Shown: positions 1,886 through 12,849 of the stretch, piece after piece
Numbering within the stretch: the first letter of the stretch is position 1
How the letters are laid out: every line of letters begins with the position of its first letter
Assembly (NCBI GenBank): GCA_031082125.1
Contig: JAVHLM010000007.1
Coordinates: forward strand, 1 to 64,000
Direction of reading: 5' to 3'
Source: Candidatus Eremiobacterota bacterium
Lineage (GTDB): Bacteria; Vulcanimicrobiota; CADAWZ01; Ess09-12
DNA: 64,000 bases
Notes under the pieces: generated by a model
Databases searched by the model: none
What the model saw: the letters and a program-made list of their open reading frames with translations, nothing else
What the model was told of the DNA's origin: nothing
Made by a program: the position numbers and the translations under genes

Positions 1886-1941
1886 AGAATCAAGAGATAC
1901 AAATGTTTCCCATAAAGATAACCTTTGAAAGGAGGATCATT

Positions 1942-4533
1942 GTGAATACCACGGCAGGAGGTCACCTCGGCGAGGTCTCTCACCGGGAGGCTGAAACAGC
2001 CACTCAGGCTGTTCTTGCCGCCCAGGCTGCTAAGCCTTATCCCGGGGTTATCCGCGAGTATCCCGGCTACGAGGCCGTCATGGAGGGCGGGCAGGTCTTC
2101 AATGCTTGCCCCGGCGTCCCTCTTGTCACGTACGGCGCCGACGAGGTGCTCTCGCGGTCGAACTGCCGCCACATTTTCCGCGACCTTACCGCCGAGGTCC
2201 TGGACTGGAACCTCTGGTGCCTCTCCCAGGCCGGTGGCAAGCTCGATCTCCTCATAGGGGAGGCCCTTCTCTCCCTCAACGGGAGGCTCGAGAAGCTCGG
2301 CTATGTGCGTGTTGGCGATTTTGTGCGCGAGGAGCTGGGCATCTCGTCAAGGAGCGGCTATGAGATGATGCGGAACGCGAAGGAGCTTCAGAAGCTCCCC
2401 CTCATCAGGGAAGCCCTTGAGAGCGGGAGGCTCCGCAAAAGCTCGCTGCGGTATCTTTTCCAGGTCGTCACTCCTGAGACTGAGTCAGAGTGGCTCCGAA
2501 AAGCCATGCATTCCACCATAAGACAAATTGAAGAGGAGGTGAAGCGTTTTAAAGCCGGGGAGGCCGGCACAGATGCTTCGGGGGCACCTTCGGAGGGCTC
2601 CGGAGCTCAAGAGGCAGGAGGCTGCCAGGGCAGTCTCGAAGGCGGCCCCGGGGGGAGCGGCATCAGGGCATTCGTCGCCGGGGATGACAACGAAGAGGAA
2701 ACAGGGAGCCTCGCGGTGAGCGTGCGGGTTCCTTTTTCCGTTGCCGCGAAGTGGGACCGGGCTCTCGAGGTCTTCCGCAGGATGGAGGAGGCGGAGCTCC
2801 CTTCGGAGAGCTTCGTGGAGGCTCTTCTTGCCGAATTTATCGCTTCGGCGCCGTCTGAGGGTCAGGGCTCCGGGGCACAGGGCTCCGGTGAGCAGGGGAC
2901 GGAGGGTCCCGGATTCCCGGCGGAGGGTTCAGAGCCCGGGGTTCCCCCGATGGCTTCTGAGGCCGCGGGAGCTTCTCTCTGCAACGCGCAGGGGGCGGGC
3001 TCACGGGGCACGGGAAACCCCGGCTGCTCCTGTAAAGGGGTGGGGCCCACCGTTGCACAAGGCGCTACGGCGGCAGCAGGCCACGGGCTTCAGCGCCATC
3101 ACGACGCAGGGGAAAAGGTGCTCCTCCTCGGCGCACTGGCAGGGGCCATCGGCGCTCTTGATGACGAGGCTTCTCTCTCCAGCGAGAAAGATCTTGCCCG
3201 GCAGGTCCACAAGGACCTCGAAGAGGTCTCTCATCTTTGGGCGTTTTTGCCCTGGAAGCCCGTCACGGTGGAGCTTCCCCCGGAGTTCCAGGCTACCGCA
3301 GGCTGCTGTTCCGCCGCCGATACCGCTGTCGGGGCTCCTGACGGGGGTCCCCTGGTGCATCCTCCCGCCGATCCCTTCGAGACCGTTGCACGGCTCAGGA
3401 AGATGGCGGCGCTCCGCCACTCCCTCTCCTTCTACCAAGGAAGGCTCCTGCGGACTCTCAACAATTTCGGGCTATACAAGGACATGCTCTTCCTGAGCCT
3501 GGGGCACTACACCAGGGAGCGCCTGGGAATGTCCCGCAGCGCCGCATATTCTCTTATTTCATTAGAAAGGAGTTATTTGGAATATCCCGATATGCTCGAC
3601 CTTGTGCAGGAGGGTAAGCTCACCCCCGAGCAGGCGCGGCATCTTGCCAGGGTCTTCATTGAGGGGACCCGCGTCAAGGGTGCGTGGCTTTCATACGCCC
3701 AGCAGGTCCCTGTGGCCACCCTCATTCAGGCCGTCGAGGGATTTCTACGCTTTGCGAAGAGGGCTGTCCACAAAAAGTGGGATATCGCTCCCGAGGCCTT
3801 CGAGGTGGCCGTCACGGGAAGGTCCGTCAAGAGGGTTTTCCCCGCACTCTCTAATGCCACGGAAACCTTTGGGGATAAGGGTTTTGATGCCGCAGTCCAG
3901 ATGTTCGCACAGCAAAAAACCATGCAAGGAGGTTCTTGGTCTGCATCCGGGGAGACTCCCGCGGTCATCTGGAAGGTCACCTGTGGCGGTACCCACCCTG
4001 AGCTCCCCGAGATCCTCTCCATTCTCTCGGGAGAGACTCCTAAAGAAGGAACCTTCGGGTCAAACCCCCAGGACCGGAGCGCCCTTATCCGCTTCTTCCT
4101 GAAACGGGACCTCATCCCCCTCTGGAACCATGCCGTGAGGCTCTGGGAAGCATCGCGGGGCGCTCACGCATCCCAGGGAGACCTCGGCCCCGAGGCTTCA
4201 GATGCGGCTCTCCTTCCCCTCTTCATCGAGGCCCTCCTTGACACCTTCCTCTCAGCCTGGGACCAGCCCGAGAAAAAAGACCTCCACAGCCGCGTGCTCG
4301 CCCGGGATAACCACCAGTGCCAGTTCCCCGGCTGCCGGTGCCGGCGCAACCTCCACGCGCATCATATCAAATACCGCTCCCATGGAGGCCCCGATACCGA
4401 GGGCAATCTCATCACCCTCTGCATGGCCCACCACCTCAGGTGTGTCCACGAAGGCCACCTCGTCATCAGGGGCACGGCGCCTCACAGTCTCACCTTCATC
4501 TTCCCCCGCGGCAGACAGGTATTTGCCACCTGA
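1942..4533 (+). CDS. Large HNH endonuclease-domain protein with internal module duplication
   Basis: About 863 residues. The C-terminal 80 residues form a classical HNH nuclease with zinc cysteines: Cys-Gln-Phe-Pro-Gly-Cys, Leu-His-Ala-His-His-Ile, Asn-Leu-Ile-Thr-Leu-Cys and His-His-Leu-Arg-Cys. An N-terminal helical module (about 2290-2560) recurs near 3445-3760: Arg-Glu-Glu-Leu-Gly-Ile-Ser-Ser-Arg-Ser aligns with Arg-Glu-Arg-Leu-Gly-Met-Ser-Arg-Ser. The copies are separated by Gly/Ser/Glu-rich low-complexity linkers. The layout resembles DUF222-type HNH proteins, which are often multicopy and of unknown role. I chose GTG 1942 because AAAGGAGG lies at 1928-1935; an upstream ATG at 1903 has no such site. 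DNA cleavage is inferred from the domain only. Confidence 0.8.
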   Translation: MNTTAGGHLGEVSHREAETATQAVLAAQAAKPYPGVIREYPGYEAVMEGGQVFNACPGVPLVTYGADEVLSRSNCRHIFRDLTAEVLDWNLWCLSQAGGKLDLLIGEALLSLNGRLEKLGYVRVGDFVREELGISSRSGYEMMRNAKELQKLPLIREALESGRLRKSSLRYLFQVVTPETESEWLRKAMHSTIRQIEEEVKRFKAGEAGTDASGAPSEGSGAQEAGGCQGSLEGGPGGSGIRAFVAGDDNEEETGSLAVSVRVPFSVAAKWDRALEVFRRMEEAELPSESFVEALLAEFIASAPSEGQGSGAQGSGEQGTEGPGFPAEGSEPGVPPMASEAAGASLCNAQGAGSRGTGNPGCSCKGVGPTVAQGATAAAGHGLQRHHDAGEKVLLLGALAGAIGALDDEASLSSEKDLARQVHKDLEEVSHLWAFLPWKPVTVELPPEFQATAGCCSAADTAVGAPDGGPLVHPPADPFETVARLRKMAALRHSLSFYQGRLLRTLNNFGLYKDMLFLSLGHYTRERLGMSRSAAYSLISLERSYLEYPDMLDLVQEGKLTPEQARHLARVFIEGTRVKGAWLSYAQQVPVATLIQAVEGFLRFAKRAVHKKWDIAPEAFEVAVTGRSVKRVFPALSNATETFGDKGFDAAVQMFAQQKTMQGGSWSASGETPAVIWKVTCGGTHPELPEILSILSGETPKEGTFGSNPQDRSALIRFFLKRDLIPLWNHAVRLWEASRGAHASQGDLGPEASDAALLPLFIEALLDTFLSAWDQPEKKDLHSRVLARDNHQCQFPGCRCRRNLHAHHIKYRSHGGPDTEGNLITLCMAHHLRCVHEGHLVIRGTAPHSLTFIFPRGRQVFAT

Positions 4534-10787: not shown

Positions 10788-11043
10788 AGTCATCTCCTTT
10801 CACTGAGAGGTACTTATAAAAATAAATACCTATTCCTGTTTTCTGCAAAAAGGCGTTCATAGCCGTCATTATGGGGAAAATCCTTAATTGTAACCATGTA
10901 AGCTAATAATATTTAAGAATTCTTTTACAAAAGTAACATTTTTTTAACTTTACTCTCTTTACCATGGGTCTTTACTACGTGATAATGCTCATGAGAAGAG
11001 AGGACTGTGTCGGTAAATTTCATTTAAATAAGGAGGGCTCACA

Positions 11044-12108
11044 ATGGATAAGATGTCAGCAATCGGCGGGTTCCCACAGAACGATATCATTGCCCAGGTG
11101 CTCAGGATGGCGCAGCAGGGCGGTATGCAGCAGGGAGCCAATATAAGTCCAAGTTTCTTCGGCCAGGATGGCCTCCAGCTCTCGGAAGGCGCCTTTGACA
11201 GGGGCGGCCCCATGAGAATGCCGGCCTTCGGCGCCCAGCAGGGTTCCCAGCCGATGGGCTACAACAACGGCATGGGCATGGTCCCCGGCTTCGGCTCGTT
11301 CGGGCAGACGGGGCAGATGGGGCAGATGGGGCAGATGGGCGGCGGCCAGCAGATGCAGCAGATGATGCAGCTGATGATGCAGATGATGATGATGATGATG
11401 CAGATGATGCAGCGCAACGGCATGATGCCTCCGAACCAGCAGGGCCAGCAGGGCCAGCAGCCCAACCAGATCCCCGGCCAGCAGGGCCAGCAGCAGAACG
11501 GTGAGGGCACCGTGGAGCTCCAGAAGGGCCAAACCTTCAAAACTCCCGGCGGGTGCGAGGTAAGCTGGAAAGGCGACACGGTGAAAGTCCATGAGCCGGG
11601 AGGCGGGCAGAAGGATCTCGCCGACGGCTTCGCGATGGCAGCGGCAGGCTCTGACGGCAAGGGCGCCTGGGCCAAGGCGGCAGCCTGGGGGAATGCCTCG
11701 GCGGCGGCGGCGGCAGCGGCAGGCGGCGGCGCGGCGGCATCGGCCTCTGCGGTGTCCGGGGCATCCAAGACAGCCCAGAGCCCGAGGGACTGGAAGGTAT
11801 ACGGCGATCCCCATATCCAGAACCCTGATGGCTCCAAGGATGAGTTCAAGACCAAGAATGCCTGCTTCACACTCCAGGACGGGTCAAAGGTCCTGATGTG
11901 CGCCGACAAGCCCGATGGCAACGTGAACAAGGTCCGCATCACCCTCCCCGGCGGGCAGATGAACCTCCAGGGCGTTGACCAGAAGCAGACCACGGTCTAT
12001 GGCAATGACGGCGACAAGATGACCAACAGGGGCACGCTTGACACCTATATGCAGCAGTTCCAGAATGCCCAGCTGAACTACAGCCCCATGGGCAACCAGA
12101 TGTTCTAG
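11044..12108 (+). CDS. Met/Gln/Gly-rich protein with DUF1521-type autocleavage domain
   Basis: 354 residues. Residues 87-155 are extreme low complexity: Gly-Gln-Met repeats, then long runs of Met and Gln, then Gln-Gln-Gly repeats. An Ala-rich linker follows. The C-terminal 100 residues carry Trp-Lys-Val-Tyr-Gly-Asp-Pro-His (Gly254-His257, codons 11803-11814), the motif of DUF1521. In NopE1 of Bradyrhizobium this domain cuts itself between Asp and Pro when calcium binds. No signal peptide is seen. AAGGAGGG at 11031-11038 fixes the start. A terminator follows, so it is a single-gene unit. Self-cleavage is inferred from the motif; the role is unknown. Confidence 0.7.
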   Translation: MDKMSAIGGFPQNDIIAQVLRMAQQGGMQQGANISPSFFGQDGLQLSEGAFDRGGPMRMPAFGAQQGSQPMGYNNGMGMVPGFGSFGQTGQMGQMGQMGGGQQMQQMMQLMMQMMMMMMQMMQRNGMMPPNQQGQQGQQPNQIPGQQGQQQNGEGTVELQKGQTFKTPGGCEVSWKGDTVKVHEPGGGQKDLADGFAMAAAGSDGKGAWAKAAAWGNASAAAAAAAGGGAAASASAVSGASKTAQSPRDWKVYGDPHIQNPDGSKDEFKTKNACFTLQDGSKVLMCADKPDGNVNKVRITLPGGQMNLQGVDQKQTTVYGNDGDKMTNRGTLDTYMQQFQNAQLNYSPMGNQMF

Positions 12109-12129: not shown

Positions 12130-12162
12130 AAGGCCGGGAGTACCTCCCGGCCTTCTTTGTTT
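12130..12162 (+). terminator. Rho-independent terminator
   Basis: AAGGCCGGGAG (12130-12140) and CTCCCGGCCTT (12144-12154) form an 11-bp stem with a three-base loop, followed by CTTTGTTT. It ends the DUF1521 transcript. Confidence 0.9.
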
Positions 12163-12236: not shown

Positions 12237-12326
12237 ATGAAGAACTATTTACTGACAATGGTCCGTCAGATATTTGACGCTGATGAAGAGGAGAGAGCCT
12301 ATGTGGTGTTTGAAATGCGGCGATAA
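12237..12326 (+). CDS. Possible 29-residue leader ORF overlapping the next gene
   Basis: ATG 12237 follows GAGAGGGAGCG, a good ribosome site, and the frame closes at TAA 12324-12326. The product is acidic in its centre (Asp-Ala-Asp-Glu-Glu-Glu) and ends Glu-Met-Arg-Arg. It overlaps the start of the zinc-ribbon gene by 26 bases in another frame, as translationally coupled leaders do. It is too short for domain evidence. Confidence 0.4.
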   Translation: MKNYLLTMVRQIFDADEEERAYVVFEMRR

Positions 12327-12849
12327 GGAACCAGGTGGCGGAGAAAAATGCAAGACCTGTGAATATCCGATAGGGACTCCGGAAAACAGGCTTTATCTCT
12401 TGCAGCTGATGCGCATGACCGGTGATCTCCTCTGCGGGAACATCGACAAGGAAGCCTATGACAGGATACTCACCAATACGTCGCTGATGCTTGACGAGAT
12501 GCACAGGGGAATACTCGCCATAGAGAGAAAGCTGAACTTTGACAAGCTCCCAGAAGGGGGGCAGTATGTCATGAGCCGGCCCCTTAACTCTTTCAAGGAA
12601 GGCATCGAGATCTTTTCCAATGCCATGGACGAGCTCAGGATGTACCTTGTCGATCCCGAGGAGGATCATCTGCGCAAGGGCCTCAAGCTCGTGGAAAAAG
12701 CCAACAATACCATGTATTACTGCTTTGAAGTCTCCCAATACGCCCTCAAGGAAATCAAGAGGTTTGTGCCTGAATCGGAGCAGCCTACCGAAGATCTGGT
12801 GAGGGAGGAGCTCGCAAAGACCCTCGGCGAATCCCAGGGGAAAAAATAA
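12301..12849 (+). CDS. Zinc-ribbon plus helical-bundle protein
   Basis: 182 residues from ATG 12301. The N-terminus has a zinc ribbon, Cys-Leu-Lys-Cys-Gly then Cys-Lys-Thr-Cys. The rest is amphipathic helix rich in Leu, Glu and Lys, with no membrane segment. GGAGAG lies five to seven bases before ATG 12301; a start at 12274 would absorb the ribosome site. The same ribbon-plus-helices plan recurs in the protein at 58389-59423, but the helical parts do not obviously align. No function can be assigned. Confidence 0.6.
   Translation: MWCLKCGDKEPGGGEKCKTCEYPIGTPENRLYLLQLMRMTGDLLCGNIDKEAYDRILTNTSLMLDEMHRGILAIERKLNFDKLPEGGQYVMSRPLNSFKEGIEIFSNAMDELRMYLVDPEEDHLRKGLKLVEKANNTMYYCFEVSQYALKEIKRFVPESEQPTEDLVREELAKTLGESQGKK

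What the first reader, a model, noticed from the sequence alone, without database searches (positions are those of the whole stretch)
11044..12108. GDPH autocleavage domain on a Met/Gln-rich protein
The C-terminal domain carries Gly-Asp-Pro-His at 254-257, the cleavage motif of DUF1521 in NopE1, where calcium triggers the cut between Asp and Pro. Here it is joined to a long Met/Gln/Gly low-complexity segment, outside any visible secretion locus. The Met run might bind copper or form a condensate, which is speculation.
Basis: partly seen in the sequence, partly recalled or inferred. Interest (0 to 1): 0.65.

Follow-up and report, generated by a model that had tools for sequence, protein, structure and literature searches.

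The report
Self-cleaving-type DUF1521 protein with partner
A little-studied bacterium (Candidatus Eremiobacterota) encodes a relative of the self-cutting domain of rhizobial NopE proteins, joined to a methionine/glutamine-rich front module that it shares with cell-wall-cutting enzymes and usually encoded beside a conserved zinc-ribbon partner gene; the cutting itself is untested.

Summary
In detail: a 354-aa ORF (11044-12108, +) has GDPH at 254-257, a Met/Gln/Gly-rich N-terminus and no Sec signal or TM segment. The C-terminal domain is DUF1521: the window protein scores just under Pfam's cut-off (20-22 vs 23.6 bits), but an ortholog passes (31.6) and GDPH is invariant in orthologs and in remote DUF1521 relatives. 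The genome is Candidatus Eremiobacterota.

(1) The domain is split just before GDPH by a ~55-residue Ala/Gly-rich insert and is charge-neutral, unlike acidic classical DUF1521 domains, so calcium control is uncertain. (2) The Met/Gln segment is a module ('PMGYNNGMGMVPGFG' + Met run) shared in this genome with a VanY, an SLT, an M15 peptidase, a Cys-protease-like protein and, weakly, an NlpC/P60 protein, suggesting an export/assembly module rather than a copper site. (3) The downstream gene encodes a zinc-ribbon/helical partner found at 12 of 25 DUF1521/module loci across five families, against 0 of 17 control regions.

Best reading: a non-Sec-exported protein cut at Asp255-Pro256, with a chaperone- or regulator-like partner. 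Cleavage, trigger and export route are inferred; a complete second T3SS was not found. New variant of a known kind.

The parts
11044..12108 (+). DUF1521 (GDPH) protein, 354 aa, P0001
   Evidence: orthologs
11030..11036 (+). Shine-Dalgarno-like AAGGAGG before the ATG at 11044
   Evidence: sequence
11044..11427 (+). N-terminal module (residues 1-128) shared with cell-wall hydrolases of the same genome; ends in the Met/Gln run
   Evidence: alignment, genome search, domains of the other carriers
11251..11295 (+). Module core motif PMGYNNGMGMVPGFG (residues 70-84)
11509..11595 (+). First part of the DUF1521-like domain (residues 156-184, beta strands)
   Evidence: searches (conserved; pLDDT about 77-87), pattern shared with DUF1521 paralogs
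11608..11772 (+). Ala/Gly-rich insert (residues 189-243), predicted disordered, just before the cleavage motif
   Evidence: (pLDDT < 50 for model residues 38-92)
11785..12057 (+). Second part of the DUF1521 domain (residues 248-338) carrying GDPH
11803..11814 (+). GDPH, residues 254-257; predicted cut between Asp255 and Pro256
12130..12154 (+). Intrinsic-terminator-like hairpin between the two genes
   Evidence: 1 found, 1.6 expected in shuffles; 11-pair stem, 8 G-C
12301..12849 (+). Partner gene: zinc ribbon (CxxC...CxxC) followed by a predicted helical bundle, 182 aa (P0002 is the same frame from a more upstream TTG)
   Evidence: translation; homology; family; linkage; model

Best explanation
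This is a diverged DUF1521 (NopE / 'MIIA'-type) self-cleaving domain in a modular protein. The N-terminal Met/Gln module, shared with cell-wall hydrolases that also lack Sec signals, most likely directs export or assembly by a non-Sec route, possibly a flagellar/T3SS-type one. After export the beta-rich C-terminal domain folds and cuts its own backbone between Asp255 and Pro256, separating the 99-residue tail from the 255-residue N-terminal part. The zinc-ribbon helical protein encoded directly downstream is a dedicated chaperone or regulator. Shown: ORF, DUF1521 homology, invariant GDPH, module sharing, conserved gene pairing. Inferred: cleavage, its trigger, non-Sec export, the partner's role.
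For: DUF1521 is the only Pfam family matched by the window protein; all 9 domains tested match it and an ortholog passes the curated cut-off. GDPH is invariant in the subfamily and in remote relatives. In the tested Vibrio homolog the cut is C-terminal of Asp in GDPH and D116A inhibits it (PMC6506597). AlphaFold gives one beta-rich domain built from both halves around the insert, with a strand ending just before GDPH. The N-terminal module recurs in five proteins at E <= 1e-39 (all five are rows of the profile) and in one more at E = 0.001; the others carry VanY, SLT, M15 and NlpC/P60 domains, enzymes that must leave the cytoplasm; no strongly hydrophobic N-terminal segment in P0001 or the carriers. 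Partner at 12/25 DUF1521/module loci versus 0/17 control regions (213 kb), in five families, mostly downstream on the same strand. Characterised DUF1521 proteins (NopE1, NopE2, VIC_001052) are tied to T3SS (PMC6506597). The genome has a flagellar export apparatus plus extra FlhA/SctV, FliP/SctR and FliF/SctJ homologs.
Against: No cleavage data. The subfamily is not acidic. The window gene is not in a secretion locus; full-length FlhB and FliR were found only in the flagellar locus, so a complete second T3SS is not shown. The partner model is only moderately confident and has no significant PDB match, and none to known export chaperones. A terminator-like hairpin separates the two genes.
Confidence: 0.5

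Rival explanations
1. Constitutive Asp-Pro self-cleavage that stabilises a structural domain, as in eukaryotic VWD domains, with no calcium trigger: the two halves stay together and the protein is a surface or matrix component built from Met/Gln and Ala/Gly-rich stretches.
For: VWD GDPH sites cleave autocatalytically and stabilise the domain (PMC10880436); near-neutral charge of this subfamily; both halves predicted to fold together; long low-complexity segments.
Against: The sequence matches DUF1521, not VWD; no fold match to VWD in the PDB search; the shared N-terminal module mostly occurs on cell-wall enzymes, not structural proteins.
Confidence: 0.25
2. A non-cleaving DUF1521 homolog that keeps GDPH for structural reasons (metal ligand or tight turn) and works as an intact effector or adaptor.
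For: Sub-threshold DUF1521 score and reduced acidity.
Against: Asp and Pro of GDPH are invariant over very divergent relatives, as expected if the bond itself is used.
Confidence: 0.2
3. A cytoplasmic Met-rich copper-binding or condensate-forming protein.
For: 27 Met in the first 155 residues, few charged residues.
Against: The Met/Gln segment is part of a module shared with VanY, SLT, M15 and NlpC/P60 enzymes; the N-terminal 155 residues lack Cys and His; no metal-handling gene among the neighbours tested.
Confidence: 0.05

Closest known systems
NopE1/NopE2 of Bradyrhizobium (DUF1521, T3SS effectors)
   Same: DUF1521 with GDPH; characterised as self-cleaving between Asp and Pro, Ca2+-dependent (as cited in PMC9185962 and PMC6506597)
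   Different: Different N-terminal module, Ala/Gly insert splitting the domain, neutral charge, zinc-ribbon partner gene, not beside a secretion locus, different phylum
VIC_001052 MIIA domain of Vibrio coralliilyticus (PMC6506597)
   Same: GDPH within a DUF1521-type domain; D116 is the cut residue there, Asp255 the equivalent here
   Different: That domain is highly acidic (42 acidic against 21 basic residues) and largely disordered without Ca2+; the window domain has as many basic as acidic residues
VWD domains of mucins/FCGBP (PMC10880436)
   Same: Autocatalytic Asp-Pro cleavage at GDPH
   Different: No sequence hit to VWD and no fold match; eukaryotic extracellular proteins
DUF1521 proteins of the same genome (L008/L009/L011) and phylum (L095-L104)
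   Same: GDPH, LxDGT motif; several have the same kind of partner gene
   Different: Two canonical ones (L008, L009) are strongly acidic; none of L008/L009/L011 has the Met/Gln module

Membership tests
DUF1521 (PF07481) | Match to the Pfam profile above the gathering score | tested here: inconclusive
   Window protein 20.0-22.0 bits, cut-off 23.6; ortholog from G044 31.6 bits; aligned along the domain with that ortholog
DUF1521 (PF07481) | GDPH cleavage motif at the profile position | tested here: met
   GDPH inside the matched stretch and aligned with that of above-cut-off paralogs L008/L009
DUF1521 / MIIA | Strongly acidic domain (calcium-induced folding), as in the tested Vibrio example | tested here: not met
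   20 acidic against 20 basic in the 187-aa domain; canonical paralogs net -14 and -18
DUF1521 / MIIA | Metal-dependent cut between Asp and Pro, lost on Asp to Ala | not testable with these tools
   Needs purified protein
NopE-type T3SS effector | Gene in, or protein secreted by, a type III secretion system | tested here: inconclusive
   Not in a T3SS locus; genome has flagellar export plus scattered FlhA/FliP/FliF homologs, but full-length FlhB and FliR only in the flagellar locus
VWD domain | Match to the VWD profile or fold | tested here: not met
   No Pfam VWD hit at E <= 10; no PDB fold match
Export chaperone (partner gene) | Small acidic helical protein encoded beside its substrate | tested here: inconclusive
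   Related partners pI 4.1-5.4, helical model, linkage 12/25 against 0/17; no match to known chaperones

The most novel reading that the evidence does not exclude
Large-genome Eremiobacterota use a dispersed flagellar/T3SS-derived export route with many FlhA/SctV-type receptors and zinc-ribbon helical chaperones to release a set of module-tagged proteins (cell-wall hydrolases, a protease-like protein and a self-cutting DUF1521 protein); the self-cut would split the tag-bearing part from the tail after export.
Probability: 0.2. Interest if true: 0.8.

Novelty: new variant of a known kind. Interest (0 to 1): 0.5.

Why it matters
It extends NopE-type self-cleaving domains to a mostly uncultured phylum and finds a conserved gene partner next to many DUF1521 genes there, which gives a direct handle on what the cut is for. 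It also reveals a tag-like module shared between this protein and several cell-wall hydrolases, which makes an unrecognised non-Sec export or assembly route testable.

Tried and rejected
Single-protein scan of genome contigs gave nothing because its patterns came largely from low-complexity stretches; the alignment A2 worked and named the phylum. Removing the Ala/Gly insert did not lift the window protein over the Pfam cut-off (21.7 bits). No PDB homolog by sequence or by fold of the C-domain or partner (best matches are generic four-helix bundles, none significant). No hits in PADLOC or in plasmids. The idea of a complete second T3SS was not supported. The copper/condensate idea was rejected because the Met/Gln segment is a module shared with cell-wall hydrolases. 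The NopE1 characterisation paper PMC3147523 is not held. No paper found that describes type III secretion in Eremiobacterota as a topic.

Full report
What is there. The ORF 11044-12108 (+) encodes 354 residues with GDPH at 254-257. It has a good ribosome-binding site and no Sec signal or transmembrane segment by hydropathy. The genome is 7.4 Mb in 69 contigs; named relatives of the protein are Candidatus Eremiobacterota MAGs and isolate SZAS-1 (EREM-KAN-1), with one record labelled Armatimonadetes.

Is it DUF1521? The only Pfam hit is DUF1521, slightly below the curated cut-off. Eight loci in seven genomes of the phylum, the window included, carry this subfamily at E <= 1e-83 in a search with an alignment built from six of them. 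An ortholog scores 31.6 bits, above the cut-off. GDPH, an acidic residue before the conserved aromatic, and the LxDGT aspartate are kept throughout. Remote DUF1521 proteins in other families of the phylum keep GDPH. I treat DUF1521 homology as settled, with the formal score caveat.

What differs. The subfamily domain is split by an Ala/Gly-rich insert (residues about 189-243) immediately before the GDPH half; AlphaFold packs both halves into one beta-rich domain and leaves the insert disordered (mean pLDDT 65, about 80 outside the insert). No solved structure matches. Net charge is about zero, against -14 and -18 for two canonical paralogs and 42 acidic against 21 basic residues in the tested Vibrio domain (PMC6506597). 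A C-terminal loop of one ortholog (G048, DNDRDGKWDNNG) looks EF-hand-like and is degenerate in the window protein, so a metal site is possible but weakly supported (inference).

The Met/Gln segment is a shared module. A profile of the N-terminal 128 residues finds six proteins in the genome, five strong (these five are rows of the profile) and one weak; single-sequence comparison had already found the relation (E 1e-10 to 5e-6). The other carriers have VanY, SLT, Peptidase_M15_4 and NlpC/P60 domains, and one a Cys-protease-like domain without a Pfam name. That last domain is encoded as a separate gene 22 bp downstream of a GDPH gene in genome G038, which again ties it to this protein set. Enzymes acting on peptidoglycan without a Sec signal need another exit, so the module is most simply an export or assembly tag (inference). 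The low complexity of the segment means that part of the similarity could be compositional; the ordered motif PMGYNNGMGMVPGFG is the best evidence that it is not.

The partner. The next gene (12301-12849) encodes a zinc ribbon plus a helical region. Its homolog lies beside the GDPH gene in the f12 genomes (30% identity, E = 8e-7). An iterative profile built from it recognises partners next to DUF1521 genes in families f1, f4, f6, f10 and f12 and next to module proteins: 12 of 25 loci against 0 of 17 control regions. Caveats: the five seed sequences of the profile came from such loci, three of the 25 loci are very close species, and the flanks of many loci are only 1.5 kb, so the rate is approximate. 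Most partners are directly downstream on the same strand; in the window a terminator-like hairpin lies between. The same family also sits beside other low-complexity proteins without Sec signals. A chaperone or regulator role is the natural guess.

Export route. NopE proteins are type III effectors. This genome has a flagellar locus and many FlhA/SctV-type genes, most of them only the cytosolic domain and away from any operon, plus an isolated FliP and two extra FliF/YscJ genes. Carriers of the GDPH gene have 7-19 FHIPEP matches; most small-genome relatives have 1-4, but some genomes without the gene also have 5-12. Full-length FlhB and FliR were found only in the flagellar locus. I therefore rate a T3SS-type route as possible, not shown.

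Verdict. A real, conserved, diverged DUF1521 protein in a new architecture with a conserved partner; self-cleavage likely (about 0.65), calcium control uncertain (about 0.45), non-Sec export likely (about 0.6), T3SS-type export about 0.4. These are judgements, not computed values.

Noticed in passing
G000 contigs C1, C2, C6, C9, C31, C38, C41, C56 (L019-L029, L038, L069): Expansion of FHIPEP (FlhA/SctV) genes: one flagellar, a few other near-full-length ones away from any operon, and many with only the C-terminal cytosolic domain; relatives have up to 19 matches.
   Followed up: partly
L069:7093-8376 (G000 C41): A 428-aa protein that fuses the C-terminal domains of FlhB and FlhA, without their membrane parts.
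   Followed up: no
L037:12290-13186, L066:6831-8477, L067:7678-8730: Isolated FliP, FliF-like and YscJ-like genes outside the flagellar locus.
   Followed up: partly
L002:754-2079 and L043:7838-9118: A conserved GNCASxAxIKAAM domain without a Pfam name (Cys-protease-like by eye), fused to the Met/Gln module in one genome and encoded next to a GDPH gene in another (45% identity).
   Followed up: partly
L034:6406-6963: A short Met/Gln protein with silk-like GASAAASAGPGG repeats and the partner gene directly downstream.
   Followed up: partly
L108:4759-6054: A partner-family gene beside a 236-aa low-complexity protein without a Pfam family, convergent orientation.
   Followed up: no
window 1903-4533: 876-aa protein with an HNH nuclease motif and a weak ParB-type HTH.
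   Followed up: no
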